64,000 bases of DNA from Desulfovibrio sp. (lineage in GTDB: Bacteria; Desulfobacterota; Desulfovibrionia; Desulfovibrionales; Desulfovibrionaceae), in NCBI GenBank assembly GCA_016208105.1, contig JACQYS010000029.1, positions 62,001 through 126,000 of the forward strand, written 5' to 3'. Under the pieces are notes generated by a model. The model was not told the DNA's origin. It saw only the letters and a program-made list of their open reading frames with translations, and did not search any database. The translations under genes were made by a program, and so were the position numbers. This document shows positions 1,612 to 19,099 of this stretch, piece after piece; the stretch's first letter is position 1, and every line of letters begins with the position of its first letter.

Positions 1612-1705
1612 GGAGAGGTACCGAAGTGGCCGTAACGGGCCCGACTCGAAATCGGGTTGCGGGTTAATAGCCTGCACGTGGGTTCGAATCCCACCCTCTC
1701 CGCCA
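1612..1705 (+). tRNA. tRNA-Ser (anticodon CGA)
   Basis: Seven-base acceptor stem GGAGAGG at 1612-1618 pairs with CCTCTCC at 1695-1701. Discriminator G is followed by encoded CCA at 1703-1705. The anticodon stem CCCGA/TCGGG encloses the loop CTCGAAA, with anticodon CGA at 1647-1649. A long class II variable arm and a T-loop TTCGAAT are present. The gene is intact although its 3' end serves as the attachment site for the island that starts here. Confidence 0.97.
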
Positions 1706-1717
1706 TCTACTCTTCCG
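1691..1717 (+). repeat. attL, tRNA-side copy of the 27-bp attachment repeat
   Basis: Identical over 27 bases to 17725-17751. It covers the last 15 bases of the tRNA-Ser gene, including CCA, plus 12 bases beyond. The bases flanking the repeat differ on both sides, which fixes its limits. Confidence 0.9.
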
Positions 1718-1912: not shown

Positions 1913-3171
1913 ATGTCCCTGACCGATGTCGCCGTTAAGAATGCCAAACCGGGACCGAAGCCTTTCAAGCTCCATGACGAGCGTGGGCTTTTCCTTCTGG
2001 TGAACCCGAACGGCTCTAAGTGGTGGCGGTTCCGCTACAGCATGAAGGGCAAGGACAAGCTCCTGTCGATGGGGGTTTACCCCGACGTTCCTCTAAAGAT
2101 GGCCAGAGAGCGTCGTGATGAAGCTCGCCTTCTCCTCGCCCAAGGCATCGACCCCAGCGTTACCCGGAAGGCTCTCAAGGGGAAAATGGTCGAAGATGAG
2201 ATGACCTTCGAGCGTGTTGCCCGGCAGTATTACTCGGAAACCTCAATTTCCATGGGCTAGAGCGAAGGCCATGCCAAGACCGTCATCTCCCGCCTTGAGA
2301 AGAACATTTTCCCCTGGCTGGGTAGCAAGCCCATCAAGTCAATTCAGGCTGACGAGTGGCGCACCAACTTGAGGCGCATTTATGAGCGTGGAACGCACGA
2401 AGTTGCCAGCAGGGTGCGTGGAGTTTGCAGCCAAATCTACGACTATTCGGTCGACAACAACTTAGCCGACGCGAACCCCATTCCTCCAAGGAAGCGGTTG
2501 TTCCCACCGAGAGTCAAGAACCACTTCCCTACCATCCTGGACCCCAAGAAGGTTGGTCCGCTCCTGAGAGCCATCGACGGATACTCGGGCCAGTTCGAGA
2601 CGATGTGCGCCCTCAAGTTGGCCCCTCTCGTTTTCGTCCGCCCTTTCAACATCCGATCTGCCGAATGGTCAGAGTTCGAACTGGATAACCCCGATGGCCC
2701 TGTCTGGCGCATCCCCGCAGAGAAGATGAAAGGCGACAGGAACCGGAAAATCACCAAGATACCACATCTGGTTCCCCTCTCCACGCAGGCCGTTGGCATC
2801 CTGAACGAACTGCTCCCTTTGACCGGCTCCTACCAGTACCTGTTCCCGGGGCTAGGGATAAGTCGAAGTGCATGTGCGAGAACACCCTCAACAAGGCACT
2901 TGGGAAGTTGGGCTACAAGGGCGAAGTAGACAACATCTGCATTCATGGTCTTCGCCACATGGCAAGCACTTTGTTGAACGAGAAGGGCTTCCATAAGGAC
3001 GCGATTGAACGGCAGCTTGCCCATACCGACAAGGACAAGATCCGTTCCACCTATAACCATGCCGAGCATCTCCCGGAGCGCCGCAAAATGATGCAGGCCT
3101 GGGCGGACTACCTCGATTCGCTGAAAACTGGCGCGAAGGTTACCTCTCTCTTCCAGGAGGCTAACGGCTGA
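1913..3171 (+). pseudogene. int: P4-family tyrosine integrase, broken by a stop and a frameshift
   Basis: Read through two lesions, this is a full-length (about 419-codon) site-specific recombinase. Residues 1-90 are the DUF4102-type arm-binding domain. The catalytic core has the first Arg in FVRP, a Lys region before PHLVPLS, the HGLRH box, and the nucleophile Tyr in STYNHAE. The C-terminal ERRKMMQAWADYL block is typical of the P4 group. Lesion 1 is an in-frame TAG at 2258-2260; the same frame then resumes without a gap. Lesion 2 is a one-base loss near 2858, after which the rest continues in the +1-related frame from 2872. The start ATG at 1913 follows GAGAGG. Both lesions could in principle be sequence errors. 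Confidence 0.9.
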
Positions 3172-3233: not shown

Positions 3234-3353
3234 CAAATCGTTCGGGACGTGAATTTGTGGCATCGCGTGTCTGTACTGCGCCACCGCCACCGATATCATC
3301 TCTTTCATCGACGTCCGAAAGGACAAAACCACCAACCGGAAGAGATAGATACT

Positions 3354-3839
3354 ATGTACGAAAACCAGTTCTGCCATGATTTTAAGACCTGGAGAAAGCG
3401 CAACAAGGTCCCCATGCTCCAGGTGAGCAAGGCACTATCCACGCCCGTGAGCACCCTCAACTCCTGGATCAACGGCTACATCCCGCTCCCGACTCAAATG
3501 AAGAAAGCCCTGGAGCGGAAATCTCTGGACGACCTGATCAGCTGCCTGACCACTGACCGGGACCGCTTCGAGCGTGAACTGGAGAGGGCCAGGAAGCTGG
3601 ACTACTTCTCGATCATCGTGGAGGCCAGCATGGAGGACGTAGCGAAAGGGTGTTATCGCAGTAAGCTCACCCCTCACTCTGCCTTCCAGTCGATTATGGC
3701 CTTCCAGGTGCGCTACGGCGTGAACTTCATCTGGGCTGGCAACCGGGAGAGAGGCGAGTACGCGACCTTCTGGACCCTGGGAAGTACCAGCGGGAGCACG
3801 ATGCCAGAGCTACAAAAGCACCGCCGGGCCTTGACGTAA
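3354..3839 (+). CDS. Small HTH / ERCC4-nuclease-like chimera
   Basis: 161 aa, start ATG at 3354 with GGAAGAG upstream; upstream in-frame codons look non-coding. Residues 8-55 resemble a Cro-like helix-turn-helix (WRKRNKVPMLQVSKAL then TLNSWINGY). Residues about 58-150 resemble the phage-type ERCC4 (XPF-like) nuclease fold: ERKSLDDL, DRFEREL, IIVEASMEDV, YRS and RYGVNFIWAGNR. In that family the ERK block is normally preceded by a GD-containing strand supplying a metal-binding Asp. Here the HTH runs straight into ERK, so the nuclease core appears truncated. It may be a fusion created by deletion between a regulator and a nuclease gene. Function uncertain. Confidence 0.6.
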   Translation: MYENQFCHDFKTWRKRNKVPMLQVSKALSTPVSTLNSWINGYIPLPTQMKKALERKSLDDLISCLTTDRDRFERELERARKLDYFSIIVEASMEDVAKGCYRSKLTPHSAFQSIMAFQVRYGVNFIWAGNRERGEYATFWTLGSTSGSTMPELQKHRRALT

Positions 3840-4433: not shown

Positions 4434-5111
4434 TTAAAAGATAATAAACTGACCTGCCGCGACAAGTTCACCCTCGATGTAAATATCCACCTTGTAATTG
4501 CCCTTTTGCAATTTGCCCGGCTCCTCGTATCCCTTGCCCCAGGCTAGACTCAGGTTCTCCTTGTTGGGCTTGATATTGAATTCTCGCTCTTGCTCTTCCG
4601 TTTTTCCGCTTGGGAAGGTCCAGACCGCCCTGAGCTTGAAGGAATAAGGCGCATCGAAGGTATACTGGAAATTGAAGCCGATTTGCCAGTTGACGAAGCG
4701 CGTGGAGTTCAGAACGAAACTGTTCTGATAAAGACGTTCCTCCCGTGGAGGGTAGGTTTTCCCGGATTCGAAGAAAGAAAAGTAGTCCAGTTTTGCGCCA
4801 TAGTCGCGGAAGGCAGAAGCGTTGCCTGGCTTTTGGATGGCCCGGTCGATATGCCCTGACTCCATCCTGAGTTCGCGCTTGCCCTTAGTGCCGGGAGATG
4901 CCGCGCTTGATTTATCCTGTTGACGTGGTTGCGCCTGCTTCCCGGCCGGAAGCGATTGAGCCGCTGGGGTCTTCGGTGCGGGTTGGGCGGCCTTGTCCAA
5001 TGCCTTGTCCAGTGCATCGAGAGCCTTCTGCGCGGAGTCGTCCTGGGCGTGGGCGCTCCCAAAGGCGAGCAGGCTTACGGCCAGCAGGGCTGTGACAGCG
5101 AAACGGAACAT
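4434..5111 (-). CDS. Secreted protein with DALDKAL motif, function unknown
   Basis: 225 aa from the ATG at 5111, which has GAGGAG in good position; the longer ORF start lacks one. Residues 1-23 form a signal peptide ending SAHAQ. The mature protein opens with repeats of DALDKAL, then an Ala/Pro/Gln/Lys-rich linker to about residue 85. A beta-rich domain follows with many aromatic residues and ends YKVDIYIEGELVAAGQFIIF. That ending looks like an Ig-like or jelly-roll strand set in which a ligand increases or modifies an output. Last gene of the island cluster. The DALDKAL opening is shared with the TPR protein at 5575. Periplasmic or surface location inferred. Confidence 0.7.
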   Translation of the reverse strand: MFRFAVTALLAVSLLAFGSAHAQDDSAQKALDALDKALDKAAQPAPKTPAAQSLPAGKQAQPRQQDKSSAASPGTKGKRELRMESGHIDRAIQKPGNASAFRDYGAKLDYFSFFESGKTYPPREERLYQNSFVLNSTRFVNWQIGFNFQYTFDAPYSFKLRAVWTFPSGKTEEQEREFNIKPNKENLSLAWGKGYEEPGKLQKGNYKVDIYIEGELVAAGQFIIF

Positions 5112-5140
5112 GGATACTCCTCGCATGCGTTGACGTTTCA

Positions 5141-5482
5141 TCATTTGCCAATGGACGCCCGCGAGAGAGCATCGGACTTGAAGACCGTCCCGGGGTAATG
5201 GATTTCTGTGATGTGGCCTAAGGTCTTTGGAACGGAAGCCTTTTCGTAGACTAGCAATACCTTCTTCCCCTTGTTGCCGTTCATAATGGCCTCGAATTTG
5301 TCTTCGCCGTCCTCGAAATTCAATTCTATTGAAAATGGACCCTTGTCAGTGGTGACAAGAAATATACCCATTCTCAGGGGTTTGTAGCCCTTGAGGATAG
5401 CCTCGATGTTTTGCGTATCTGCTGCATGAACTGAGACGCATACTAGAAACACAAATGTGAACACGCAAATGACTCTGTACAT
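5141..5482 (-). CDS. Small secreted protein of unknown function
   Basis: 113 aa with a signal peptide (residues 1-20, ending VHAAD). The ATG at 5482 has GGAGGTG four bases upstream. The mature protein of about 93 residues is probably one small beta-rich domain with the segments PFSIELNFEDGED and KKVLLVYEKA. It is not recognised as a known family. It sits 29 bp before the downstream secreted protein and is probably co-transcribed. No Cys remains after the signal peptide, so it is not a lipoprotein. Confidence 0.65.
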   Translation of the reverse strand: MYRVICVFTFVFLVCVSVHAADTQNIEAILKGYKPLRMGIFLVTTDKGPFSIELNFEDGEDKFEAIMNGNKGKKVLLVYEKASVPKTLGHITEIHYPGTVFKSDALSRASIGK

Positions 5483-5574
5483 GTCACCTCCAAAAATTCA
5501 CATTTTGATGACGAATTGCTTATACCTGAACAATGCCATCACATACCAGCCCCGTCACAAGAGTCAGGTGACGC

Positions 5575-6516
5575 CTACTTGAAAACCGCATTCTCTATCC
5601 CAGAGTAGATCGCCTTTGCCTTCGCTTCGTCAGCAGAAGCCTTGTCCTTCTCGCCCTTGTCCCTTAGGGCGAGCGCTCTATAATAGTATGCAAGAGCCTG
5701 CTCGGTATCACCTTCAATCGCTTTTGTGTAGTCACTGATTGCAGCATCAATGTCACCCAACAGTTGGTACGCTCTGCCTCGTCGCATATATTCAGCCGAA
5801 CTGTTTTTCCCTAAGTCTATGGCTCTATTCAAATCAGACATGGCCTTCTGCTTGTCACCGATTTTCGTCCAGACCAATCCCCGGCTGGAGTATGCTTCTG
5901 CAGAATTTGGATTAATCTCGATCGCTCTATCGCAATCCATTATCGCCTGATCTATCTTTCCAATTTTTGCAAGCGTATAGCACCTACTGACAAACGCTTT
6001 CTCACTGGCGTGGTCCAATGAAACTGCCTTGTCCAGGTCTTCGAGCGCTCCTTCCAAATCACCAAGCATTCTTTTCGTGGAAGCCCGCAATCTGTATGAG
6101 GAAGCTGTGTTGCTGCGTACTGCAATGGCGGAACTTAGATCCGTCTTCGCTAAGTCGTACATCCAAAGTAAAATGTAGGCATTCCCTCGCAAGTAATATG
6201 CACTGACGGCCTCAGGATTATTCTCAAGTGCTTTTGTGAAATAATCCACTGCCTGTGCATACTGTTTATTTGTGAGACTTGACTTGCCTTTCTCTATGTA
6301 TTCCTGTGAGGAAATAGATCCTTCCTGCTTGCTTTTTTCTGAATACTTTTTTTGCTGGGTCGAAAGGGGGGACTGTTGATCAACAGCGGGCACAGGCTGC
6401 CCAAGCGCTTTGTCCAAAGCATCCATGGCGTCCTTGCTTGCGGCATCCTGGGCAAAGGTCAACTGGATTCGTAAAACTAAAGCAAGCACGCCGACCATGA
6501 TCAGTATTCTTGTCAT
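5575..6516 (-). CDS. Secreted TPR protein with DALDKAL motif
   Basis: 313 aa from the ATG at 6516 (GGGGTGA upstream); an ATG at 6552 is possible but would put 12 polar residues before the signal peptide. The signal peptide ends near TFAQD. DAMDALDKALGQP follows immediately, echoing the protein at 4434. A linker rich in Gln and Lys leads to about six tetratricopeptide repeats (from about residue 70 to 300), with motifs such as AYYLRGNAY, SAYSSRGL-like segments and YYYRALALRDKGE. TPR arrays mediate protein contacts, so a periplasmic scaffold or partner of the giant neighbour is plausible. Its stretch is AT-richer than its neighbours, which suggests separate acquisition. Confidence 0.75.
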   Translation of the reverse strand: MTRILIMVGVLALVLRIQLTFAQDAASKDAMDALDKALGQPVPAVDQQSPLSTQQKKYSEKSKQEGSISSQEYIEKGKSSLTNKQYAQAVDYFTKALENNPEAVSAYYLRGNAYILLWMYDLAKTDLSSAIAVRSNTASSYRLRASTKRMLGDLEGALEDLDKAVSLDHASEKAFVSRCYTLAKIGKIDQAIMDCDRAIEINPNSAEAYSSRGLVWTKIGDKQKAMSDLNRAIDLGKNSSAEYMRRGRAYQLLGDIDAAISDYTKAIEGDTEQALAYYYRALALRDKGEKDKASADEAKAKAIYSGIENAVFK

Positions 6517-6561
6517 ATTCGTCACCCCATTTATCTGCTTGTCTGACGACATCCCGCCTCG

Positions 6562-9500
6562 TTATTGAACTCTTGTAAGTTGGAATTTACAGTGATTCTC
6601 GATACGTGAGCTGTCATGGGTAACCAAATCTGAAGACCCGCTCGCGGTAGAACCCCGGATCACTCCTCGAAAAGTCATACTCCATGTTCTATCCTTATCT
6701 ACTCTATCTTTCCCCTTCACGGTCACGGAGAACTCCCCTGATTCAGCCACGGAGCCTTCCGACCGGAAGTTGCCCTTATTCGTTGTGGCCTCGAACAAGC
6801 ATTTGCCGTTGTTCACGGAAAGGGTGAATGGGACAACACCCGTCCCGCCGCTTTGGGGAACAACGCATTCTCCCTTGAATATCCCGTTATGGGACGTGAG
6901 CTTGCCTCCCCCGCCAACCGATGAGGCTGCCCCCCCCTGACGCGTGGCGCTCCAGGTACCGGGCTGCTCAACCCAGCCCTTGGCAAACCAGTTTCCTTTG
7001 GCCTGAGCACCTTCCAAAGAGCCCGACACCGTTCCGTTCACGGGATAGGATGAGTTTCCAAATTTGTAGGCACCACTAACCTGGGCGGTTATCTTGCCGC
7101 TGGCATCTACGCTCCCCCTGAGTTGGAGGGTGAAGTCCGTTGTCCCAACCGTTCCGGACACAACTCCGCCGGAGATGACCATGTTGACGTTCCCCTGGGC
7201 CTCGCCCGTGAAACGGCCCGCGTAGGTCCCGTCGAACCGCGCCGATCCTCCTGAGGGTTGCGTCGAAGCGGGAGAAGACGCTGGCGGGGATGAGGTGGGG
7301 GCGGTCGTTTGTGCCGGGCTCGCGGTGCTGGCTTTTTCGCTCGCTATGGCCGCCTTGGCCGACTCCACGTTGTTTTTGTAGAGTTCCTTGTCTGGATTGC
7401 ACTTCCTGGCCGACTCATACCAGGAAAGCGCCGCCTGGGCATCACCCTGCTTTCTCATTTGCACGCCGATGTTGTTCATGGCGCCGCAATTGTCCGGACA
7501 GATGGACAAAAGCTCCTTGTAGGCGCGAACGGCCGCTTGAGATTCACCCCTGTCGCCCATGCTTTTTGCCTGTTCAAAAAGCTTGTCGCACTGCTTTTTC
7601 GTGTCCTCTCGTGCCGATTCAGGGGGCTTGCCTCCGGAGGGTTTGCCGGAGTCAACGGCAAGCTGCGCAGTCTTGTTTTTCTCCATGACCTTCTGTTCGG
7701 CCTTGGCCTTAAGATCCTTGGCCTTCTTTAACAATTCGGCGTCTTGCGGCCCGAAGTCCTTCTCCGCGCCCTGCAGCGCTGAACCGAGCCTGTCCCGGCA
7801 ACTCTCCCAGTTTTCCTTACCGCAATCCGCTGAAGCGGCCACGATGTCATCCAGGCGCTGTTTGCGCGTGTTCTCCTTGAGCCCGGTTTCGAGCGACTGC
7901 ATTGCCTTGGCGTGGAGCGCCTTAGCCTTGTTCAGCACCTCGGGATCGCTCTTGCCGAGGACGGCGTCAGCGTTGAGCAGCGCCTCGTCAAGCTTGCTCT
8001 TGCAGGCGAACCAGTGCTGCTGGTTGCACAACTGCGCCGCAGAGGCGATCAGCTCCAGCCGCTTTGACCGCTCGGCGTTGTCCTTGGCCTCAGTCTGCTT
8101 CTTGGCAGCCAAGCCCTGCTCGGCTTTGGCCAGCAGTGCATTGGCCTTGCCTACCATCTCGGCGTCCTGGGGACCGAAAACCTTCTCTGAGCCGTTCAAG
8201 GCAGACGTCAGCTTCTCCTTGCAGGCCTGCCAGTTTTCCTTGGTGCATTCTCCCGCTCCAGAAACAATGAGGTCGGTGCGGCGCTTGCGCTCAGCTTCGT
8301 TCTGGGCGCTCTCGCGTGTGAGCTTCTCAAGCTCGGCTTCCACAGCGAGAAGCGGTTTGTAGCGGGAGCTGATCGCCTTCCCATCAGCCACGGCTGCCAT
8401 GCCCTTGGCCGTGTCCTTGGCGTTCAGCGCGTTCTTGGCCTCGCCCACGGCGAAATGGAGTTTATCGAGCCTTCCTGAGTAGGATTTCTTTTCCTCCTGG
8501 GCCTTGTCATGTTTCGGATCGACCTTGAGGGCTTCTTCAACCGTCGCGGCAGCCTTGTCTGCCTCCCCGTCGGACCACTCCCTGGCGGCTCTTGTGAGAA
8601 GTTTTTCCACCTGGCCGAGTTTGTCCTTTGCCTGCTTGATCTTCTCCTCGAGCACGGCCAGGGATTTGGCCTTGGCGTTTATCTTGCGCCCTGCCTCCAA
8701 CTGTGTTTGGGCCTTATCCACATGGTCCGCCGTCAGCTCGGCTTCGCCTTGCTTCACAGCCTGGGCTATTGCGTCGCGGCCCTGGCAGTGCAGGCCTGAA
8801 GCTGCTTTCGCCTCGGAGCTTGCCGGATCGAACTTCACCGCTTCCTGTGCCGTTTGGCAGGCCTCGTCCACCTCGCCGTCATCCCAGTGTTTTTTGGACT
8901 TCACCAAAAGCTTGGCCAGTTCCTGTTTCTTCTTCTTGAGCTCCATGAGCTCCTTCTCAAGGTCGAGCAGAGGCTTATAGGCGGCGTTCACGCCCTTGCC
9001 GTTCGTGACGGCGGTCAGGGCCGGATCGATTTCGCCCTTGGACTGAAGCGACTTGGCCTGTTCCAGGCTGGCCTTGAGTTTGGACAGCCCCTCGGCGTAG
9101 CGTTGTTTCTCGGACTTGGCCCGATCCATCTTTGGGGCTAGGGCGAGCGCCTCGGATGCCAAGCGCTCCGCGCCTTCGGCGTCGCCCTCCGTCCATTTTC
9201 TGGCGGCCTGGGCCAGAAGATCCTCGGCCTTAGATTTGGTTTCCTTGGCCTTCTTGATCTTCTCCTCGAGCGCGGCCAGGACCTTGGCCTTAGCGTTGAT
9301 GCGCTTGGCCTCGTCGAGCTTGGTCTGGGCGCGGTCCGGGGCGTCCTGCCCCAGTTCGTCTTCGCCTTGCTTAGCCAGGGTCAGGAGGTGCTCACGGCCG
9401 TCGCAGTAGGTTTTGACATCCGGGAATTTGGGGTCGATCTGTGCGGCTGCTTTGGCCTTGCCGCAGGCCAGGTCGATATCCCCGGCGTTCCAGGCGGCTG

Positions 9501-12500
9501 CGGCCTCTTGTTTGAGCTTCTCCAACTCCTGGGCCTTGGCCTTGCCCTGCTTGATGTCCTCGTCGGACACGGTGACGGGCACACTGACCGAGCCCGTGCC
9601 CAGAAGCGCGTTGTTGCCGTCGCGGACCTCCACCTTGGCCTCGATGGTTCCCTTGGACGACCGCTGCGCCCGAGTCTCCCGCGAGGCCGGATTGCCGGAC
9701 AGGGTGGAGCCCTCGTTGACCGTCCACTTGTAGCGGAGCGCCTGCCCCTGCGGCGGGGCGGGCGAGACGTCGGCGCGAAGGCCCACGTCCATGTGGGCGG
9801 CGATCTCCTTGTCCAGGGCGACGAGGCCCACGCCCGGCTTCCAGACCACTGGCCGCGTGGTCTCGCCGCCCCAGGTGTGGCCGAGGCTCACGGCCGTGAC
9901 CTGATAACTCTTGGGGGTTACGGTCAGCGAGGCCCTGGCCAGATCCTCGCCGCCCTTCTTGCCCTTGAGCATGGCGTTGACCGTGACCGGCTTGGCCTCC
10001 TTCACGGTGAACTTCCACTGCCGCTGGTTGGCCGTTGGGCCGGTTCCCGCGCCGCCCTGGGAGTCGTCCCACCAGTAGGCTGCGTCGGCGTCCAGGACTT
10101 TAGGGTTCTCCACGGCTGTAACCGTGACCTCTTGGCCGACCAAAGGCTCGGCCGGGGAGGCGGTCAGGGTTATGGACGTCCCCGCGACCTCCAGCTCGAT
10201 CTGGTTGGATTCGGCCACGGTCGTCAGCGCCGCGCCATCCTTCCTGAGCGCCACGGCCCAGACCTTGACCTTGCCGGGCCTTGTGAACGTGGCGGTGTTG
10301 GTAAGAAGGCCCTGCCCTTCGTTCCTGGCGAAGCGCGCCTCGGTGGAGGGCTCCCAGCGGATGACGAATGCGGATGCGTCGGCGGGCTTGCCTTCGCTCA
10401 TCAATTGGGCTTCGAAGCGCGCTTCGGCCCCGGCGGCAAGGGCGTTCCCGGCGGGAGCCGTCTTGCCCAGCTTGAGCGTGACTGCCTCCCCGGCAAGGCT
10501 TAAGTCCCCGTAGGCCGTCTGGCCTGCCGAATCGAACGCCTGCACCCTGGCGACCACATGCTTCTTTCCTTCGGGAATGGCGTATGTGGCCGAGTTCTCC
10601 CTGGAGGTTTCCGCTCCCTTGAAGACGTATGTGTAAGGAGGCTTGCCGCCCAAAGCCATCGCGACGACCGTGACGGGTTTTCCGGGCGCGGACTGTTTCC
10701 CGTCGATCCTGAGTTCGACCTTGAGCGCGGGTGGCGCGGATTGCTTGGGCGGCGCGATGTCCACCTTGCGGGAAGGACCGCCGCAGGTCTCCACGTAGAC
10801 CTGGACAGGCTTGGTCTTCCAGTCGAAGGGGGGGACTCCCCCCGCGTTCATCCAGAACTGGTCGGCCCTGGTCATGGCCGCCTCGTATCCCGCATCCGGA
10901 TCACCCCTGCCGGAGAGAATATCCCAAATGGCCTTGGCTTCCCGCGCCCTCTGGTCGAGGCGTCCCACGTACTCGTCTCTGGCGCGCTTGACCCTCTCGA
11001 AACAGGCCTTGTCGAAGACGTCTGGCACCGAGTCGGGAGTTTCGCCTTCCAGGTTGGTCACGGTGCTGGAGTGGTAGCCTTTGCGTTCATCTCCAGCGGG
11101 ATTGACCTTTGTGACCGGGCCCTGTCTTCGTTCAAATGCCTTCGAGGGGGCAGCCTGTTCCAGAGGTACCGGCTTCATTCCCTCATCGGAAGGCTCGAAT
11201 TGACTGGACGGCTTCCTCGGGGCAGCCGGTCCGGATGCCTTCGGCTGATTCTTGAGCACGTCGTCGTACGCCCTCCCGGCCTCGTCGCGCCATCTGGCGA
11301 GGTGCTCGGGCAGGCCGTCGAAGTTGGACCTGGCGTTGTTCCAATAATGCTTGAGCATGCCTTCGGCATATTGAAGCCGTTCCTCGTAGGCGCGCTTCTC
11401 CTTGGCCGCAAGCGAGGGAACGGCCAGTTTTTTCTTCATCTCGGCCCGAAGGCTCAGGGCCTCCCGCCACGACTCTACCCCGCTCTTGGAGGACAGCGAA
11501 TCCACCATGTCGCTTAAATCAATGGCCGGATCCTTTGCTTCTTTATCCTTGGGCCGCTGGGGGTCTTCTGGAACGAGTGGTTTCTGTCCCGAGTCCGCCC
11601 CGGTGGAAGGCTTTTGGACGTCCGCGCCCGGCTGGCCTGTCTTCGGGGGCTGCCCCTGGTCCCCCGGCTTGGTTGGTTGCGCGCCCGTTTGGCCTTGAGG
11701 CGTCACGGTAGAGGGCGGAACAACGGCCGGGGGCGGCGTCACAGGCGGGACCGGCGGGAAGACGGGACCGGGCGTCTTGTCCAGGGGAGTTTTGCCGTCC
11801 GCGCCGGGCTGATCCGGCCCTGACGTTTTATCGCCCTTGCCTTCCTTGCTGCCTTTGGCGTCTTTGTCGTCCTGAGCGTCCTTGTCCGTCTTGGGTTTCG
11901 GGGGGTCCTTCTTGTCATCGGGCGGGGCGGCCACCGTGAAGCGGGCCGAGGCCTGGGCCAGTTCCTTGCCGTCATCGCGCTTCATGCGCACCGAAACCTC
12001 CGCGCCGCCCTGTTCCGGAGCCCGGATCATCGCCTGGGAGCCGCGCCGGTCCACGATCTGGCAATTTTCGCACGACCATTCGTAGCCAAGCGGCCGTCGC
12101 GCCGACGTGGAGTCGGGCGAAGCTGAAGCCGTCACCGTGCCCCCTGCTTGGGGCGTACTCGGGTGCAACGTAAGCGAAACGGAGGGTTTTTCCGCGGGGC
12201 GCACCGTCACCTTGGTATGGACCGAGGCCTCCGCTGCCGGTTCGGCCTTGAGGCTGAAGGTTGCCTGCACCGTGGCCTGTCCCGGCTCGTCGGGGGTAAA
12301 GGAGGTCTTGAGCGATCGTTTATCGGAGAAGGCGGCACCATACTGGTCCGATGCCCACTCCACGATCACCTTGCCTTCATTGAACATGGTCCGCAGGGCT
12401 GGGTCGGTGATCCGGGCCTCGAACACGCCAGGTACACGCTCGATCATCTCTTTGCCAGGCGGAACAAGCATAACTCCCTTGGCCACCAGCTTCTTCAAGT

Positions 12501-15500
12501 CCACGGCCTTGGCGTAGAGGGCCTTCACCTTCTCCAGGGCGTCCTTGTACCATGCGTGGTAGGGGGAATCCTTCCCGGCCATGGGGGGCAAAAGGTCCGG
12601 GATGGGCGTGGCGGCAGAGTCCTTCGGGGTGTCCACCTTGGCGGAGTTGGCCGCATCCAGCGCCGCGCGGTTGCGGTAGGCGACCTCGGCCAGGATGCCA
12701 AGGGCCTTCAGGTCGGTCTCGTCCAGCACATCCGGGGCCGAGCCCTTTATCTTGCCCACGTCCTGCACGATGGCGTTGGTGGCGGCCATGAAGCCGCGCC
12801 GGGATTGCCGGGCCTTGGCCGCGTCCTGGAAGAAGTTCCCCGAGAACGGGAAGGCCAGGACTTTCGCCTCCTTGTAGCCCGTGCGTTCCACGATGTCGTT
12901 GAGGGTGTCGCTGGCCTCTTTGAGGATGGTCTCGTAAGCCTTGAGCGCCGCCTGGAGGTACCCGCCCTCGGCCAGGGCCTTGTCCCTTTTGGTGGAGGTG
13001 TCCCCGGAGATGGACGTTGCCCGGAGATCGCCAGCCTTGGCCGCACGTTGGGCGGCCTCCTGGGCCAGGTCCACGCCGAGCGGGGAGCCCCGCAGGCTCT
13101 CAAGCTCGCGCTGGATTTTCATGATCTGCTTGACCGCCTCGTCCGAGCCCGTGAGCGCCTTGTGCGCGTCCTCGGCCAGGGAGATGAGGTGGGGGACCAT
13201 CACGTTGGGGAAGATGTCGTCGGCGCGATCCTTGATCTTGTTCTGGTATATCGTGACCAGCTCGCACCACTGCTTGGGCAGCTTGGTGCAGACGCCTTCA
13301 ATGGCGAAAAGCAGCCTGAAGCCCGATTTGGCGGCCTCCAGCCACTGCTGGTCCGTGATCTGGCCCATGGCCTCGCCCACATTGATGCGCCCGATCTGCT
13401 GGATGAGCGCCTTCTTCAGGTCGTTTAGAACCGGGTCGTTCTCAACGTAGTGGCGGGCGTAGACCTCGGAGGCCTTCTCGGAGAGGTTGGCCGTGTAGAA
13501 GAGATCGGGTCTGTTGGTGTTGGCGAGCCTGACCGTCCGGTCTTCCTTGAGGAAGGCCGCGAGCCTGTCGCGGGGGACGGTCTCGCCGCCGGGAAGCTTT
13601 AAAGCCGTAAACCGCCCGTCCTCGAACACCCCGTGGGTTTCGAGGATGTCCACCAGTCCGTCCTTGTAATTGGAAAGCGTGACCGCGCGGGTGGCGTCGT
13701 AGGTCATCTCGGCCAGGTCCGCCGACAAGGCGGCGGGCCACAAAACTGTCAAGTACATGGACTCCTTGACGAACTGGTAGGCCAAGCCGGGAGAAATATA
13801 GCCGTCCTGCTTCATGCGCTCGAAACTCATGGCGCCGGGAAGGAAATCGGGCAGGGTGGAGGCGGCCGAGGAGAGGTCGTTGTACCAGCCGCCGTCCTTC
13901 CAGCGCTCGTTCATCTTGGAGAAGGCCACCGCTCCGCCGCTCATGGCCAGGGCCACGAGCACCTTCTTGCCCGCCGGGCTCTTGATCATGGCCACAACCA
14001 GGGCGTCGCCCTCCTTGGTGGCGGCCGCCTTGGACATCTCGTCCACCAGGGCCAGCTCGTTCTTGCGCGTTTGGCCGCCCGCGCCCGAAAGCATGGCCTT
14101 GCGGTCCGCCAGGGCCTTGGCGCGCTGCGCGGGAGTCATGGCGGGAAGCCGGGCCAGCATGGCCGCGAACTCGTCCTCCATTCCGGCCCATTGCCTGAGC
14201 ACCGCGAGCATGTCGTCGGCCTGCTTGCTGGCGGTGTAGAGCATCTTTTTGAGCTCGGGGTTGCCGTCGGCGTTTTTGATGAGCTCCTCGATCATTTCAT
14301 CAACATCCACCATGCCCTTGAACTCGGGCTTGCCGCCAAGGTCCTTGAGCATGGCGAAGCCGGTGGCCAGCTCGTCGATGGCTTCGCGCACCTGCGGGTT
14401 GGCGGCCAGGTTGCCGCCCGCCTGGCGGGCATTGAGGGACTGGAGGAAAAGCCGGTTGTTGGCCGCCTTGAACCCCTCCACGATGTTGTCCCGGCGAAGC
14501 TTGAGCAGGAAGGTAGCCTCGTCCGGGGTCATCTCAGGGGGAGGGAATCTGGAGAAGCGCGAGGCCATCTCCTCCAGCCTGCTCACGGAAGCGTCCGACG
14601 CCACGCCCCGGCTCTCGTTGAGCTTCTTGCGCGAGCGCAGCATGTACTTGACCTTCTCCGAGCCGGTCAGGTTGTCCCAGCCCTTGTGGGCGTCCACGAT
14701 CTGGCGCTCAACGCTTGCGGTCATGGTAAGGGGGCCGTACTTTCGGGCGGCATTGTCGATGAATGAGTCCAAGGCGGACTTCGTGGACTTGAGGCTTGAG
14801 AGGTGGTCAGCCAGGGAGACCCGCGTGAAAGTGAGCTTTCCGTCAGGTCCCTTGGCCAGAACCACGGCGCCCTTCTTCATGGTTTCGCCGCGTATGCCGC
14901 TCATGGCCGACTGGCCCACGAACTTTTCGGGATCGAGCAGGTCGAGGATTGCCTTGTCCTGCCGGGAAAACTTGCCCGGATCGTTCAAGGTGAAGCCCTT
15001 GACCTTCACCCCGCCAAGGCCCCTATTCCTCACTTGCTGGTTGAACCATGTCTTGGCCTCCTGCGCGCCTTCGCCGACGAAGGTGATGTCGTCGTCGGAG
15101 AGAAGCGGGCGATAACCCCCTCCCGCGTCCTTGCCCAGATGGCGAAGTCCCGACGAGCCCGTGCGCACGGCAGCTTCCAGGTTTGGAAATTTGGTTGCGG
15201 CCTCGCGCAGGATGTCGTCCACCTGGGCGAAGCGCCTGGCGTCGAGTTCCTCCAGGATGCTCGCGCGGAATTTGTCGCGGGCCTGCTGCGTGGCGGGGAC
15301 GCCGTTGAAGGTGTTGATGGAGTTGATCGAGCTGTCGAGCAGGCGCAGGAATTCCTCAGTGTCCTTGCCGCCTTCGATATTGATGAAAGGTAGCATCTCG
15401 TCGAAGTCGCGCTGCTGCCAGTTGTCGGCCGCTTTATGAATAAGGTTGGCGAGCGTGGTCTGATTGGAGGCCCATGCGCTTTGGAGGGCAGAGCAGGGAA

Positions 15501-15588
15501 AAAGCAGTGAAAGAAGCAGGACTGTGAGGAAGAAGAACGGCAAGCAATAGTGAAACGCTCCCACCGGCAGGCATGGATGCTTGATCAT
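6562..15588 (-). CDS. Giant secreted multidomain protein (3008 aa)
   Basis: Not assignable to a known family. Residues 1-40 are a signal peptide (hydrophobic FFFLTVLLLSLLF, ending AWA). Residues about 140-330 include GGG then SDDDITFVG, reminiscent of the G-G and D-x-D core of nucleotidyltransferase folds. Residues about 330-1080 are mostly alpha-helical. Ig/PKD-like beta modules lie at about 1125-1220. A Pro/Lys/Asp-rich linker covers about 1220-1360. More Ig-like modules run from 1615 to 2010, with motifs such as ALRYKWTVNEG. Next come helical/TPR-like repeats: two tandem copies of about 200 aa (2020-2430) and three of about 70 aa (2430-2640). A TPR pair lies near 2665-2735. Two beta-rich domains end the protein (about 2780-2890 and 2900-3008). 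No transmembrane anchor or sorting signal is evident. It lies 45 bp before the TPR gene. Likely a periplasmic or extracellular scaffold; the activity is inference. Confidence 0.8.
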   Translation of the reverse strand: MIKHPCLPVGAFHYCLPFFFLTVLLLSLLFPCSALQSAWASNQTTLANLIHKAADNWQQRDFDEMLPFINIEGGKDTEEFLRLLDSSINSINTFNGVPATQQARDKFRASILEELDARRFAQVDDILREAATKFPNLEAAVRTGSSGLRHLGKDAGGGYRPLLSDDDITFVGEGAQEAKTWFNQQVRNRGLGGVKVKGFTLNDPGKFSRQDKAILDLLDPEKFVGQSAMSGIRGETMKKGAVVLAKGPDGKLTFTRVSLADHLSSLKSTKSALDSFIDNAARKYGPLTMTASVERQIVDAHKGWDNLTGSEKVKYMLRSRKKLNESRGVASDASVSRLEEMASRFSRFPPPEMTPDEATFLLKLRRDNIVEGFKAANNRLFLQSLNARQAGGNLAANPQVREAIDELATGFAMLKDLGGKPEFKGMVDVDEMIEELIKNADGNPELKKMLYTASKQADDMLAVLRQWAGMEDEFAAMLARLPAMTPAQRAKALADRKAMLSGAGGQTRKNELALVDEMSKAAATKEGDALVVAMIKSPAGKKVLVALAMSGGAVAFSKMNERWKDGGWYNDLSSAASTLPDFLPGAMSFERMKQDGYISPGLAYQFVKESMYLTVLWPAALSADLAEMTYDATRAVTLSNYKDGLVDILETHGVFEDGRFTALKLPGGETVPRDRLAAFLKEDRTVRLANTNRPDLFYTANLSEKASEVYARHYVENDPVLNDLKKALIQQIGRINVGEAMGQITDQQWLEAAKSGFRLLFAIEGVCTKLPKQWCELVTIYQNKIKDRADDIFPNVMVPHLISLAEDAHKALTGSDEAVKQIMKIQRELESLRGSPLGVDLAQEAAQRAAKAGDLRATSISGDTSTKRDKALAEGGYLQAALKAYETILKEASDTLNDIVERTGYKEAKVLAFPFSGNFFQDAAKARQSRRGFMAATNAIVQDVGKIKGSAPDVLDETDLKALGILAEVAYRNRAALDAANSAKVDTPKDSAATPIPDLLPPMAGKDSPYHAWYKDALEKVKALYAKAVDLKKLVAKGVMLVPPGKEMIERVPGVFEARITDPALRTMFNEGKVIVEWASDQYGAAFSDKRSLKTSFTPDEPGQATVQATFSLKAEPAAEASVHTKVTVRPAEKPSVSLTLHPSTPQAGGTVTASASPDSTSARRPLGYEWSCENCQIVDRRGSQAMIRAPEQGGAEVSVRMKRDDGKELAQASARFTVAAPPDDKKDPPKPKTDKDAQDDKDAKGSKEGKGDKTSGPDQPGADGKTPLDKTPGPVFPPVPPVTPPPAVVPPSTVTPQGQTGAQPTKPGDQGQPPKTGQPGADVQKPSTGADSGQKPLVPEDPQRPKDKEAKDPAIDLSDMVDSLSSKSGVESWREALSLRAEMKKKLAVPSLAAKEKRAYEERLQYAEGMLKHYWNNARSNFDGLPEHLARWRDEAGRAYDDVLKNQPKASGPAAPRKPSSQFEPSDEGMKPVPLEQAAPSKAFERRQGPVTKVNPAGDERKGYHSSTVTNLEGETPDSVPDVFDKACFERVKRARDEYVGRLDQRAREAKAIWDILSGRGDPDAGYEAAMTRADQFWMNAGGVPPFDWKTKPVQVYVETCGGPSRKVDIAPPKQSAPPALKVELRIDGKQSAPGKPVTVVAMALGGKPPYTYVFKGAETSRENSATYAIPEGKKHVVARVQAFDSAGQTAYGDLSLAGEAVTLKLGKTAPAGNALAAGAEARFEAQLMSEGKPADASAFVIRWEPSTEARFARNEGQGLLTNTATFTRPGKVKVWAVALRKDGAALTTVAESNQIELEVAGTSITLTASPAEPLVGQEVTVTAVENPKVLDADAAYWWDDSQGGAGTGPTANQRQWKFTVKEAKPVTVNAMLKGKKGGEDLARASLTVTPKSYQVTAVSLGHTWGGETTRPVVWKPGVGLVALDKEIAAHMDVGLRADVSPAPPQGQALRYKWTVNEGSTLSGNPASRETRAQRSSKGTIEAKVEVRDGNNALLGTGSVSVPVTVSDEDIKQGKAKAQELEKLKQEAAAAWNAGDIDLACGKAKAAAQIDPKFPDVKTYCDGREHLLTLAKQGEDELGQDAPDRAQTKLDEAKRINAKAKVLAALEEKIKKAKETKSKAEDLLAQAARKWTEGDAEGAERLASEALALAPKMDRAKSEKQRYAEGLSKLKASLEQAKSLQSKGEIDPALTAVTNGKGVNAAYKPLLDLEKELMELKKKKQELAKLLVKSKKHWDDGEVDEACQTAQEAVKFDPASSEAKAASGLHCQGRDAIAQAVKQGEAELTADHVDKAQTQLEAGRKINAKAKSLAVLEEKIKQAKDKLGQVEKLLTRAAREWSDGEADKAAATVEEALKVDPKHDKAQEEKKSYSGRLDKLHFAVGEAKNALNAKDTAKGMAAVADGKAISSRYKPLLAVEAELEKLTRESAQNEAERKRRTDLIVSGAGECTKENWQACKEKLTSALNGSEKVFGPQDAEMVGKANALLAKAEQGLAAKKQTEAKDNAERSKRLELIASAAQLCNQQHWFACKSKLDEALLNADAVLGKSDPEVLNKAKALHAKAMQSLETGLKENTRKQRLDDIVAASADCGKENWESCRDRLGSALQGAEKDFGPQDAELLKKAKDLKAKAEQKVMEKNKTAQLAVDSGKPSGGKPPESAREDTKKQCDKLFEQAKSMGDRGESQAAVRAYKELLSICPDNCGAMNNIGVQMRKQGDAQAALSWYESARKCNPDKELYKNNVESAKAAIASEKASTASPAQTTAPTSSPPASSPASTQPSGGSARFDGTYAGRFTGEAQGNVNMVISGGVVSGTVGTTDFTLQLRGSVDASGKITAQVSGAYKFGNSSYPVNGTVSGSLEGAQAKGNWFAKGWVEQPGTWSATRQGGAASSVGGGGKLTSHNGIFKGECVVPQSGGTGVVPFTLSVNNGKCLFEATTNKGNFRSEGSVAESGEFSVTVKGKDRVDKDRTWSMTFRGVIRGSTASGSSDLVTHDSSRIENHCKFQLTRVQ
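7665..8300 (-). repeat. Three tandem ~70-residue C-W-C repeats inside the giant gene
   Basis: Three consecutive protein repeats begin near 8300, 8080 and 7870. Each has the pattern R-x-x-x-I followed by Cys, Trp and Cys (ECTKENWQACKEKL, LCNQQHWFACKSKL, DCGKENWESCRDRL) and then a D-x-E helix ending in AKA. The paired Cys could form disulfides in the periplasm. Confidence 0.8.
8310..9530 (-). repeat. Two tandem ~200-residue repeats inside the giant gene
   Basis: At protein level, two copies follow each other, with the boundary near 8920. Each contains a Trp-Asp/Gly-Asp TPR-like start (AAWNAGDIDLAC, KKHWDDGEVDEAC), then RINAKAK or KINAKAK, LEEKIK, a second TPR-like unit (KWTEGDAEGAE, EWSDGEADKAA) and YKPLL followed by a coiled-coil end. 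Copies are diverged but collinear over their whole length. Confidence 0.8.
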
Positions 15589-15701
15589 GAAGAACCCTTC
15601 GCTGCTTGTGTGTTCAAACGGAAAACAACTGCCACCCTCACCCCTTCATCTTCATCGGCTCCGCCGCGCGCCTGCGCGCGTCCAGGGTCTCCCTGCGGCT
15701 A

Positions 15702-16319
15702 TCAGCCCGCGTCCCGCAAGGGTTTGACCTTGGATTTGGACCGCGAAAGCCCCTTCTCCACCAGTGCCTCGGCCTTGGCGTAGTTGTCCGGGCGGCAATA
15801 GAGCCGGACGTGCTTGAACCATTTGTCGCGCAGACTGATGACCGCCGGTTCGGGCGAGAAACGCACACGGCGTAGCTCGGAAAATTCCAGGCGTGTATGC
15901 TCCTGAGCACGGGCGGTGAGACCAACTCCGACGGCAACGGGCTTTCCGGCAAGGATGCCAAGAAGGATGGCCAGACGGTTGCCTGCTTTGGCCTTGCGGC
16001 TTGCAACCAGGGCGTTGATCCCGTCTTCGTCGATAGCGAACGCTAGCTCCATGCGGTTTCTGAAGAAGATCAGCATGATCAGCACGAACAGCACTGTCAT
16101 CCCAGCGCAGATGAGTCCGAAGAGCTGGAGGACACCGAGGAATACCTTCATGTCGCGGGCGAAGAGCCCGATCAGGCAGGCTATCAGCGCCATGGCCGCG
16201 TAGGTCAAGAGCATCCAGCGCGCGAAGTCGGTGAGCATGAAGCGGTTGGTGAGCAATGGAACTGTGATGTCCCAAGCCAAGAGGGGCTCAACGGGCTTTG
16301 GTGCGGCGCGTTGTCTCAC
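15702..16319 (-). CDS. Two-helix membrane protein, possible PH-like domain
   Basis: 205 aa from a GTG at 16319, which has AGGAG eight bases upstream; a GTG at 16361 lacks one. Two strong transmembrane segments lie at about residues 30-55 and 60-85, joined by a short turn (FARDMK). A soluble C-terminal part follows, about residues 90-200, with strands such as MELAFAIDEDGINALV and ISLRDKWFKHVRLY and a final helix (KAEALVEKGL). This layout resembles membrane-anchored PH-like proteins (YcxB/DUF-type), but that is only a shape comparison. First gene of the island cluster, 113 bp before the giant gene. It may anchor or assist its export. Confidence 0.65.
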   Translation of the reverse strand: MRQRAAPKPVEPLLAWDITVPLLTNRFMLTDFARWMLLTYAAMALIACLIGLFARDMKVFLGVLQLFGLICAGMTVLFVLIMLIFFRNRMELAFAIDEDGINALVASRKAKAGNRLAILLGILAGKPVAVGVGLTARAQEHTRLEFSELRRVRFSPEPAVISLRDKWFKHVRLYCRPDNYAKAEALVEKGLSRSKSKVKPLRDAG

Positions 16320-16630
16320 GGAAGTAGCTCCTGACGGGCTTTTGGCCGGGACCTTGCGCACGACGAATGAATCGCCCAGCTAACTTTTAATGACAAATAT
16401 GGTCTTGGGATGTCAATGAGAGGACGGAACAGGCTCATTTAGGGCCTGAAGGGGGTTCTCTTGGCTTTTCGGCTGCTGACTCTCAAAAATGGAAAAATAT
16501 GGAGTAACGCAAGAGGTCGTCTTCCTGGGCGGTTCGCGACGATCCTATGAGGTCATGTTACGACCCGCAGTTCTGGGCAGCCGTTAAGAGGAGGCAAGCA
16601 TCGTCACCTGTAACAACCACAGGACCCACA
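16320..16630. promoter_or_regulatory. Divergent intergenic region of the island cargo
   Basis: It separates the minus-strand cluster from the plus-strand secreted protein, so promoters for both should lie here. AT-rich stretches occur at 16380-16410 and 16485-16505. I could not define a convincing -35/-10 pair. GAGGAGG at about 16590 lies too far from the ATG at 16631 to serve it. Confidence 0.4.
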
Positions 16631-17119
16631 ATGATTTCGAACAGGTCGGCCGGTTATTACGCATTGCTCGCTTACGCTGTATTCGTCCTGCTGCTGTGGG
16701 ATTCACCCAAAACCCTGGCCCAGGAGTGCACTCCACTGCCGGAGAGCGATCGTTACACCGTTCTGGCCTACCTCCAGGCGATGCACCAGGGGCAGTACTC
16801 GCGTACAGGCCCTTCCATCAAAGTGTTTGAGGTTGGAGGAGGCGACCCCGCAATGAACGGTTCATTCATTTATCTTCGCATCGACCACAATGACCGATCG
16901 TTCGTATGGAACACGGGGTTGAACGTACGCTCCGTCAAGAGGATGTCATTTGGTTCCGGAAACGCTATTTTGCTCCGCGTGGACGAGGATTTCATGAACA
17001 GCAATGCTGCTATCGTCCACCGCACGGCTACGTACCGGTTGTTATTTTATTTAGACGGCGGTGTGCTTCGGAACACCGTGACTCTAGATGGTGGTGTGCC
17101 TGGTATCAAAAAAGAATAA
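16631..17119 (+). CDS. Secreted protein of unknown function
   Basis: 162 aa from the ATG at 16631, chosen because it opens a good signal peptide (two basic-polar residues, then YYALLAYAVFVLLLW, ending TLAQ). The ATG at 16547 would add 28 unlikely residues. Neither start has a good ribosome site. The mature part has two Cys at most (ECTPLPESDRY) and a beta-rich C-terminal half (FIYLRIDHNDRSFVW, AILLRVDEDF, YRLLFYLDGG). No family recognised. It faces away from the giant-protein cluster and may be an accessory of it. Confidence 0.6.
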   Translation: MISNRSAGYYALLAYAVFVLLLWDSPKTLAQECTPLPESDRYTVLAYLQAMHQGQYSRTGPSIKVFEVGGGDPAMNGSFIYLRIDHNDRSFVWNTGLNVRSVKRMSFGSGNAILLRVDEDFMNSNAAIVHRTATYRLLFYLDGGVLRNTVTLDGGVPGIKKE

Positions 17120-17724: not shown

Positions 17725-17751
17725 CCACCCTCTCCGCCATCTACTCTTCCG
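17725..17751 (+). repeat. attR, distal copy of the 27-bp attachment repeat
   Basis: Perfect 27-base match to 1691-1717, including the last 15 bases of tRNA-Ser. It marks the right border of the island. The chromosomal sequence that originally followed the tRNA resumes at 17752. Confidence 0.9.
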
Positions 17752-17927: not shown

Positions 17928-18764
17928 ATGGCCCACGCCCTAGCATCCCTGACCTTCCTCGCCGTCGCATTCGCCATTTTCTGGCTTGCACACCGCCTCT
18001 GTGCCCTTCGCATTGAAAAGTCCAACAACGTTTCCATTGATGACCACATAACCAATGGCAACAATACCGCCTTGGCCCTTCGCTTCTCGTCCTTCGCGCT
18101 GGCTACCGCCCTTGGACTCTGCGGCCCGCTAAGCGCGCCCTCCACGGGATTCCTGCGCGACATCGCAAGCTTCGCCTTCACAGGAGTGATCCTTCTGGCC
18201 CTTCTGTTCATCGCTTTCGCCATTCTCGACCGGGTAGTCCTGCCTGGGCTCAACAACACCCAAGCCATCCTAGGCGGCAACAGCGCGGTCGGGTTCGCCG
18301 AAGCCGGTGGCGGCCTGGCCACGGGATTCATTCTCCGGTCAGCCTTTTCGGGCCAAGGCTCCCTTCTCTCCGGCGTGGTTTTCTTCCTCCTGGGGCAACT
18401 CACCCTCGTCCTTTTTCTTAAACTTCTCGAACGGTTGTCCCCTTTTGACGATCAGGCTGAAATCGCCCAGGGAAATCCGGCTCTTGGCCTGCATCTGGGC
18501 TCCATGCTGGTCTGCCTCTCGCTTATCCTGGCCTCGGCCGTATCGGGAGATTTCACTGATTGGGGCCGTGACATCTGGGCCTTCTGCCTTGCCGCCATCC
18601 GGGGCATAATTCTCCTCCTGGCCGGGTGCTACCTGACCGACAAGGTCCTTCTGGCAAAGACCACCCTGACCCAGGAAATCGCCCGGGACAAAAATGCCGC
18701 GGCCGTGATCGCGGACATGGGCGTCAAGCTGGGCTTGGCCCTCATCATCGCTGCCACCGCATAG
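17928..18764 (+). CDS. DUF350 inner-membrane protein (YjfL-like)
   Basis: 278 aa with about eight hydrophobic helices in two similar halves, matching the duplicated DUF350 architecture. Seen: FTGVILLALLFIAFAILDRVVLP in half one and GIILLLAGCYLTDKVLL in half two, each followed by a polar helix with small residues. ATG at 17928 with AGGAG seven bases upstream. First gene of a three-gene set with a lipoprotein and a glutathionylspermidine-synthase-like protein, the same trio as YjfL-YjfM-YjfC of enterobacteria. Role in the envelope unknown. It is the first chromosomal gene after the island. Confidence 0.85.
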   Translation: MAHALASLTFLAVAFAIFWLAHRLCALRIEKSNNVSIDDHITNGNNTALALRFSSFALATALGLCGPLSAPSTGFLRDIASFAFTGVILLALLFIAFAILDRVVLPGLNNTQAILGGNSAVGFAEAGGGLATGFILRSAFSGQGSLLSGVVFFLLGQLTLVLFLKLLERLSPFDDQAEIAQGNPALGLHLGSMLVCLSLILASAVSGDFTDWGRDIWAFCLAAIRGIILLLAGCYLTDKVLLAKTTLTQEIARDKNAAAVIADMGVKLGLALIIAATA

Positions 18765-18773
18765 GGCACGGCC

Positions 18774-19091
18774 ATGAAACGATCGCGCCACGTCACCATC
18801 GGCCTCGTAGTATCGGTCAGCCTTGCGTTAAGCGGCTGCGTTTCCGACGACGATGACGAAGAATACCAGCGAGGGAATTATCACAACATCATCTACCATT
18901 CCTCCGGGCGCCCCTACCTCGTCGGCGAGGACAGGTCCGTAAGGCCTTTGCCAGCCGACCATCCGAACTACAACGCGGCTGTCGCGGAGGGTCAGGCCAT
19001 CGCATCGGGCAATAAGTCCTCGACAGGAAAAACCTTCGTCAGCCGTGGCGGCTTCGGTTCCACAGGCGCACACCTTTCATCCGCATCCTGA
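18774..19091 (+). CDS. Small lipoprotein (YgiB/YjfM-like)
   Basis: 105 aa. A type II signal peptide ends in the lipobox LALSGC (Cys at about residue 23). The mature protein begins with an acidic run (DDDDEE), followed by a Tyr/Gly/Ser-rich body ending FGSTGAHLSS. The pattern (acidic start, RGGFG near the C-terminus) resembles YgiB/YjfM proteins that accompany glutathionylspermidine-synthase-like genes. It lies 9 bp after the DUF350 gene and 8 bp before the ligase gene, so co-transcription is likely. Confidence 0.8.
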   Translation: MKRSRHVTIGLVVSVSLALSGCVSDDDDEEYQRGNYHNIIYHSSGRPYLVGEDRSVRPLPADHPNYNAAVAEGQAIASGNKSSTGKTFVSRGGFGSTGAHLSSAS

Positions 19092-19099
19092 CCCAACCC

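What the first reader, a model, noticed from the sequence alone, without database searches (positions are those of the whole stretch)
4434..16319. Uncharacterised secreted gene cluster built around a 3008-residue protein
One minus-strand cluster encodes a two-helix membrane protein, a giant exported protein, a secreted TPR protein and two further secreted proteins. It is carried on an island and fits no system I know. The combination of an NTase-like N-terminus, Ig modules, a disordered linker, TPR-like repeats and beta-rich C-terminal domains suggests a large periplasmic or surface assembly. This is the best candidate for a new system here.
Basis: partly seen in the sequence, partly recalled or inferred. 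Interest (0 to 1): 0.75.

Follow-up and report, generated by a model that had tools for sequence, protein, structure and literature searches.

The report
Mobile giant-protein cluster with shared tags
A block of genes that moves between sulfate-reducing bacteria encodes one giant exported protein plus small exported proteins that share a short tag, which may be how they are gathered into one undescribed machine.

Summary
The cluster is real. It is the cargo of a 16.0-kb island at tRNA-Ser(CGA), bounded by an exact 27-bp repeat (1691-1717, 17725-17751). Relatives of the giant were found in 8 other genomes of the phylum: 3 in the window's family, 4 in a second, 1 in a third. One (G666, by size D. 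magneticus RS-1) lies on another island, at tRNA-Leu, with a different type of integrase. The five-gene set as such is not conserved. The giant is, and in 8 of 9 giant genomes (not the window's) so is an undescribed inner-membrane protein.

New finding: 10 exported ORFs beside the giant in 4 genomes share a ~17-residue tag behind the signal peptide (49% mean identity; flanks 21-22%), ahead of mostly unrelated domains (TPR, Sel1, PDZ, PAN, FGE-type). In 288 family genomes it occurs in those 4, plus diverged copies in a fifth that has the membrane protein but no giant. In one genome the tag hit led to the locus that the N-domain search had missed.

The N-terminal nucleotidyltransferase-like fold has moderate support. 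Best reading, untested: a giant envelope scaffold recruiting tagged modules. Pfam, NCBIfam, PADLOC and PDB sequence searches name no known system.

The parts
1612..1705 (+). tRNA-Ser (anticodon CGA), the island's integration target
   Evidence: ARAGORN and Rfam
1691..1717 (.). attL-like direct repeat, 27 bp, 3' end of tRNA-Ser
   Evidence: exact copy at 17725-17751
1913..3171 (+). tyrosine integrase in three separate ORF pieces (1913-2260, 2369-2929, 2872-3171)
   Evidence: Pfam Arm-DNA-bind_3, Phage_int_M, Phage_integrase, one per piece
3249..3839 (+). HTH plus ERCC4-nuclease-like protein of the island; not known to belong to the system
   Evidence: Pfam ERCC4 E 4.4e-10; HTH_3 below cut-off
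4434..5144 (-). tagged exported 236-aa protein, fold unknown
   Evidence: no Pfam or NCBIfam match above cut-off
4968..5048 (-). N-terminal tag of the 236-aa protein (DDSAQKALDALDKALDK)
   Evidence: tag profile hit G000:C29:66968-67048, E 8.9e-9; a training row of the profile
5141..5482 (-). exported 113-aa protein without tag
   Evidence: no family match; signal peptide read from the sequence
5575..6552 (-). tagged exported TPR protein, 325 aa
   Evidence: Pfam TPR_1 E 4.2e-37
6382..6453 (-). N-terminal tag of the TPR protein (DAASKDAMDALDKALGQ)
   Evidence: tag profile hit G000:C29:68382-68453, E 1.9e-8; a training row of the profile
6562..15588 (-). giant exported protein, 3008 aa
   Evidence: relatives in 8 other genomes
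14848..15246 (-). nucleotidyltransferase-like part of the giant (about residues 115-247)
   Evidence: AlphaFold2 model, Foldseek and VIA-align matches
15088..15159 (-). G144-S145 ... D165-x-D167 motif of the giant, invariant in the 6 aligned N-domains
   Evidence: alignment A1
11464..11931 (-). fast-changing P/K/D-rich linker of the giant (about residues 1220-1375)
   Evidence: composition and 36-37% identity to relatives against 82-83% for the N-domain
9376..10491 (-). conserved middle core of the giant (residues 1700-2071; Ig-like part running into TPR-like repeats)
   Evidence: profile A3 finds giants with other N-domains
15702..16361 (-). two-helix membrane protein, 219 aa (alternative start 16319)
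   Evidence: 85% identical relative directly upstream of the MBC34 giant; dN/dS 0.13
16547..17119 (+). exported 190-aa protein at the island's right end
   Evidence: 45% identical relative in the RS-1-like island, next to the membrane protein B gene
17725..17751 (.). attR-like direct repeat, 27 bp

Best explanation
The island carries a modular, exported assembly. The giant is a periplasmic or cell-surface scaffold: a ~1000-residue N-terminal part with a nucleotidyltransferase-like fold, a flexible linker, an Ig-like and TPR-like backbone, and a C-terminal domain. Small exported proteins with different working domains (TPR, Sel1, PDZ, PAN, FGE-type, unknown) carry one ~17-residue amphipathic helix directly behind the signal peptide. 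This helix is the docking tag that recruits them to the giant, most likely onto its TPR-like repeats, since the tag resembles a lone TPR helix B. In most relatives an inner-membrane protein (B), with a periplasmic beta-propeller fused or encoded nearby, anchors the assembly; in the window genome the two-helix protein may take that place. Shown: gene content, mobility, conservation, co-occurrence of tag and giant, purifying selection on the giant. Inferred: export, location, that the tag binds, what it binds, anchoring. Unknown: what the assembly does and whether the NTase-like domain is catalytic.
For: Giant relatives in 8 other genomes, on islands at two different tRNA genes in the two best-resolved cases. 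dN/dS 0.15 for the N-domain. Ten tagged ORFs beside giants in 4 genomes, scores well clear of 1896 reversed ORFs (best decoy E 3.9; the three tags outside the training rows E 9.6e-8, 4e-4, 1.5e-3). Tag 49% mean pairwise identity against 22% (signal) and 21% (after). Remaining sequences mostly unrelated: only the two TPR proteins match each other. In 288 family genomes, 8 hits below 1e-5, each in one of 3 giant genomes; reading the 41 weaker places gave 2 tags in G011, whose giant was not known at that point, and 2 diverged copies in G662. B occurs in 8 of 9 giant genomes and 1 of 23 without, that one being G662.
Against: No binding, location or export data. The tag was found in none of the four second-family loci nor in the G328 locus, so the giant can do without it. 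The window genome lacks B, and the two-helix protein shows no relation to B. Seven of the ten tags trained the profile. Two of the ten are in apparently broken or truncated genes (MBC34 FGE-type gene in two frames; 84-aa ORF). Tag-like stretches are common inside TPR proteins, so the motif alone is not specific; its place behind a signal peptide is. The NTase fold rests on a model of pLDDT 62 with no Foldseek match at E <= 0.001.
Confidence: 0.4

Rival explanations
1. A polymorphic-toxin-like weapon: the giant delivers an NTase-like domain into rival cells, the swapped N-terminal domains are different payloads, and neighbouring small exported proteins are immunity or accessory proteins.
For: Mobile islands; three N-domain types on one conserved body; RelA/SpoT-like NTase-fold toxin domains and their use in delta-proteobacteria are described (PMC3482391, passages only); Rel among the Foldseek matches.
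Against: In the described systems the variable toxin sits at the C-terminus (abstract wording, listing); here the variable part is N-terminal and about 900-1000 residues. No secretion or processing domain was recognised by Pfam in the pieces searched. No small partner gene follows an N-domain type consistently.
Confidence: 0.17
2. The tag is an export, sorting or self-association signal rather than a dock to the giant; giant and tagged proteins share a destination but do not form one complex.
For: Its fixed place directly behind the signal peptide in all ten ORFs suits a sorting signal as well as a docking tag.
Against: Only proteins next to a giant carry it, whereas a general sorting signal should appear on many proteins of a genome.
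Confidence: 0.25
3. The shared N-terminus is a by-product of gene duplication and domain shuffling within islands, without present function.
For: Some pairs are clearly recent copies (MBC34 215-aa and 84-aa ORFs look alike from the signal peptide through the tag). One tag helix resembles a common TPR helix.
Against: Mean identity falls to 21-22% on both sides of the tag, the opposite of simple 5' copying, and the tag persists across four genomes of three genera ahead of different domains.
Confidence: 0.13

Closest known systems
Cellulosome (cohesin-dockerin scaffolds)
   Same: Works like it in outline: one large exported scaffold, several exported proteins with unrelated working domains that share a short common module.
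   Different: No cohesin or dockerin match in the Pfam scans made; the shared module is an N-terminal ~17-residue helix; Gram-negative sulfate reducers; binding untested. Comparison rests on recall and paper listings.
Polymorphic toxin systems
   Same: Large exported mobile proteins with swapped terminal domains; NTase-fold toxins exist among them (PMC3482391, passages).
   Different: Variable part N-terminal, no recognised toxin, processing or immunity family.
DNA polymerase beta-like nucleotidyltransferases (MNT/MntA, CCA-adding enzyme, Rel)
TolB / PD40 beta-propellers
   Same: G011 and G328 loci encode PD40-repeat exported proteins next to B or the giant; NCBIfam TolB is a weak match (31.9 bits).
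   Different: Far below the TolB cut-off (343 bits); no Tol-Pal genes noticed beside them.
Undescribed ~830-1230-residue chromosomal relatives of the giant's middle part
   Same: Same middle core (A3 E 1e-85 to 1e-145) with TPR-like ends.
   Different: No N-domain; found in 17 of 288 family genomes, mostly one genus (13), with or without a giant.

Membership tests
Genomic island at a tRNA gene | integrase next to a tRNA gene and direct repeat of the tRNA 3' end at the far end | tested here: met
   tRNA-Ser 1612-1705, integrase pieces 1913-3171, 27-bp repeat 16,034 bp apart
Genomic island at a tRNA gene | empty site in a close relative | tested here: inconclusive
   right-flank gene found in 2 of 5 same-genus genomes, no tRNA within the stretches fetched
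DNA polymerase beta-like nucleotidyltransferase | GS...DxD motif | tested here: met
   G144-S145 and D165-D166-D167 invariant in 6 of 6 aligned N-domains; other two N-domain types have look-alike motifs by eye only
DNA polymerase beta-like nucleotidyltransferase | NTase fold | tested here: inconclusive
DNA polymerase beta-like nucleotidyltransferase | catalytic transfer of a nucleotide | not testable with these tools
   needs biochemistry
Cohesin-dockerin scaffold (cellulosome) | cohesin modules in the scaffold, dockerin modules in the partners | tested here: not met
   no such Pfam match in the window proteins and relatives scanned
Cohesin-dockerin scaffold (cellulosome) | specific binding of shared module to scaffold | not testable with these tools
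Polymorphic toxin system | C-terminal variable toxin domain with adjacent immunity gene | tested here: not met
   variable part is N-terminal; no toxin or immunity family in Pfam or NCBIfam scans
Known anti-phage defence systems | match to a PADLOC model | tested here: not met
   7 proteins scanned; only weak TPR-type matches in the TPR protein, best E 0.0037
Tol-Pal TolB | NCBIfam TolB score above 343 bits | tested here: not met
   31.9 bits for the G011 propeller

The most novel reading that the evidence does not exclude
An undescribed class of mobile exported machine in Desulfobacterota-type bacteria: a giant scaffold with an exchangeable NTase-like head recruits a locus-specific set of exported modules through a short N-terminal helix tag that mimics a TPR helix, a docking code unrelated to cohesin-dockerin, so that each island builds a different assembly on the same chassis.
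Probability: 0.3. Interest if true: 0.85.

Novelty: categorically new. Interest (0 to 1): 0.62.

Why it matters
If the docking reading holds, Gram-negative bacteria have an independently evolved, mobile tag-and-scaffold system for building exported protein assemblies, with a 17-residue tag that could be tested and reused at once, and a nucleotidyltransferase-like domain outside the cytoplasm, where no ATP is expected (general knowledge), would pose a clear biochemical question. Even if it does not, a conserved giant-protein family with an undescribed membrane partner, moving on islands of different integrase types, is a new family to be named. 'Categorically new' here means that no described system was found to file it under; the function is untested.

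Tried and rejected
Relation of the window's two-helix protein to membrane protein B: none by profile comparison. Homology between the three giant N-domain types: the window type shows none to the G011 or G328 type by hhalign (G011 against G328 not compared). PDB sequence relatives of the N-domain: none up to E 10. Plasmids and phage records: no match for the N-domain, nor for the middle core in plasmids. IMG/VR viral contigs: no relative for A1 or A3. Defence systems: nothing. A G004 match to the N-domain (E 1.9e-4, 28% over 132 residues) was not confirmed by profile and dropped. The structure model of the two-helix protein is poor (pLDDT 49) and was not searched. Tag search in 232 phylum genomes with the ten-row profile: only the window genome below 1e-5; five others between 0.001 and 0.005, internal to other proteins when read. 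Eight of the 16 phylum genomes matching A3 are weak, short matches (E 1e-5 to 6e-4), mostly at the TPR-like end, and are not counted as giants. Literature: seven searches gave listings without a description of this system in the open-access library held; one paper was seen in passages only (PMC3482391). The library lacks most subscription journals.

Names Desulfobacterota and Solidesulfovibrio for other G handles are inference.

Full report
What is there. Five minus-strand genes lie at 4434-16361: exported 236 aa, exported 113 aa, exported TPR protein (325 aa), giant exported protein (3008 aa), two-helix membrane protein (219 aa, or start at 16319). They are the main cargo of an island: tRNA-Ser at 1612-1705, exact 27-bp repeat at 1691-1717 and 17725-17751, an integrase in three ORF pieces, an HTH/ERCC4-like gene and one exported 190-aa gene at the right end. 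Sister species did not show an empty site in the stretches looked at.

Relatives of the giant. The N-domain has an 80%-identical relative in the Solidesulfovibrio magneticus MBC34 record. Across samples it was found in 5 of 395 phylum genomes including the window's, 4 of 6 genomes of the second family's class and 3 of 288 genomes of the window's family. A profile of the middle core found two further giants with other N-domains: G011 in the family search (19 of 288 with a match) and G328 in the phylum search (16 of 395). In all, nine genomes: window, G666, G667, G011 (one family), G070, G107, G143, G172 (second family), G328 (third). G107 and G070 run off their contigs; G107 shows only 317 residues. 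The other 17 family matches, counting genomes, hold an ~830-1230-residue chromosomal relative without N-domain (13 in one genus, 3 and 1 in two others); G666 and G667 have both.

Mobility. In G666 (by size D. magneticus RS-1) the giant lies between a 23-bp repeat of the tRNA-Leu 3' end, 44.4 kb apart, with an integrase of DUF6538 type, different from the window's Arm-DNA-bind_3 type. G667 has pieces of the same island on several contigs. Selection: giant dN/dS 0.24 overall (window-G666, dS 0.97), 0.15 for residues 40-1060; two-helix protein 0.13.

Partners. Membrane protein B (four or five hydrophobic stretches by eye) was found in 8 of 9 giant genomes and in 1 of 23 genomes without a giant that were tested. 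It is the neighbour, or next but one, upstream of the giant in G070, G107, G143, G172 and G328, divergent in G011, 17 kb away on the same island in G666, and on another contig in G667. The G143 copy is short (214 aa). In G070, G107 and G172 B is fused to a C-terminal repeat part that looks like a beta-propeller by eye (no Pfam match for the two of these scanned); G011 and G328 encode separate PD40 proteins. The window genome has no B, and its two-helix protein is not related to B by profile comparison.

The tag. Exported proteins beside the giant begin, directly behind the signal peptide, with a segment of the form xxxKALxALDKALGK. Ten ORFs carry it: window 2, G667/MBC34 4, G666 2, G011 2. Their other parts match TPR, Sel1, PDZ, PAN, FGE-sulfatase-type or nothing, and only the two TPR proteins resemble each other. 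Mean pairwise identity is 49% in the tag, 22% in the signal peptide, 21% in the next 25 residues. A profile of seven tags scored the three others at E 9.6e-8, 4e-4 and 1.5e-3 in 1896 ORFs of the loci; the best reversed ORF had E 3.9. In 288 family genomes it gave 8 hits below 1e-5, in the window genome, G666 and G667, each at the giant locus or its contig pieces. The 41 weaker places (E 0.0017-0.1) were all read or attempted: 2 are the G011 tags, which led to that locus before its giant was known; 2 are diverged copies behind signal-like stretches in G662, which has B but no giant; 36 lie inside other proteins or not behind a signal peptide, many in TPR helices; 1 (G498) gave no ORF match. In 232 phylum genomes only the window genome was below 1e-5. 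The tag was not found in the second-family or G328 loci.

How it may work. The most economical reading is a scaffold (giant) that gathers locus-specific tagged modules in the envelope, often with a membrane anchor and propeller. The tag resembles TPR helix B, and the giant carries many TPR-like repeats, which suggests, without proof, insertion of the tag helix into that repeat array. Rivals are a toxin-like system, a sorting tag without complex, and a shuffling by-product; all are given with their tests. No function of the assembly is claimed.

Known or new. Pfam, NCBIfam and PADLOC name none of the central parts, the PDB has no sequence relative of the N-domain up to E 10, and seven paper searches listed no description. 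The arrangement resembles cohesin-dockerin scaffolds in logic but not in parts.

Noticed in passing
window 17928-20242: Right behind the right repeat lies a DUF350 / lipoprotein / glutathionylspermidine-synthase-like operon (YjfL-M-C-like by recall). The RS-1-like island ends beside DUF2491 and a coiled-coil protein, YjfK/J-like by recall (L032:6723-9200).
   Followed up: partly
L021:5112-8339, L116:5819-9043, L117:7865-11143: Chromosomal exported ~1080-residue proteins share the giant's middle core and TPR-like end but lack the N-domain; probable ancestors or helpers of the giant's backbone.
   Followed up: partly
L061:750-986 and L157:290-688 (G662): Two diverged tag-like N-termini (QDDSAQMALEALTKTLDTT, QDNTAQKALEALTKTLDTT) very like the N-terminus of the window's 236-aa protein, in a genome with membrane protein B but no giant found.
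   Followed up: partly
L115:13216-14736: A transglutaminase-core lipoprotein-like gene precedes B and the giant in G328.
   Followed up: no
L021:3-2753: Long protein made of near-identical short repeats (LSTTQLAALGTAQMAS...), next but one to the giant's chromosomal relative in MBC34.
   Followed up: no
L010:13066-13374 and 3270-3572: Two related ~100-aa one-helix proteins (DUF7489-like, below cut-off) flank the giant in G172; one lies between B and the giant in each of the four second-family loci.
   Followed up: no
L003:7931-8814: The tagged FGE-sulfatase-type gene of MBC34 is split over two overlapping reading frames in this metagenome-derived record; error or decay cannot be told apart here.
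   Followed up: no
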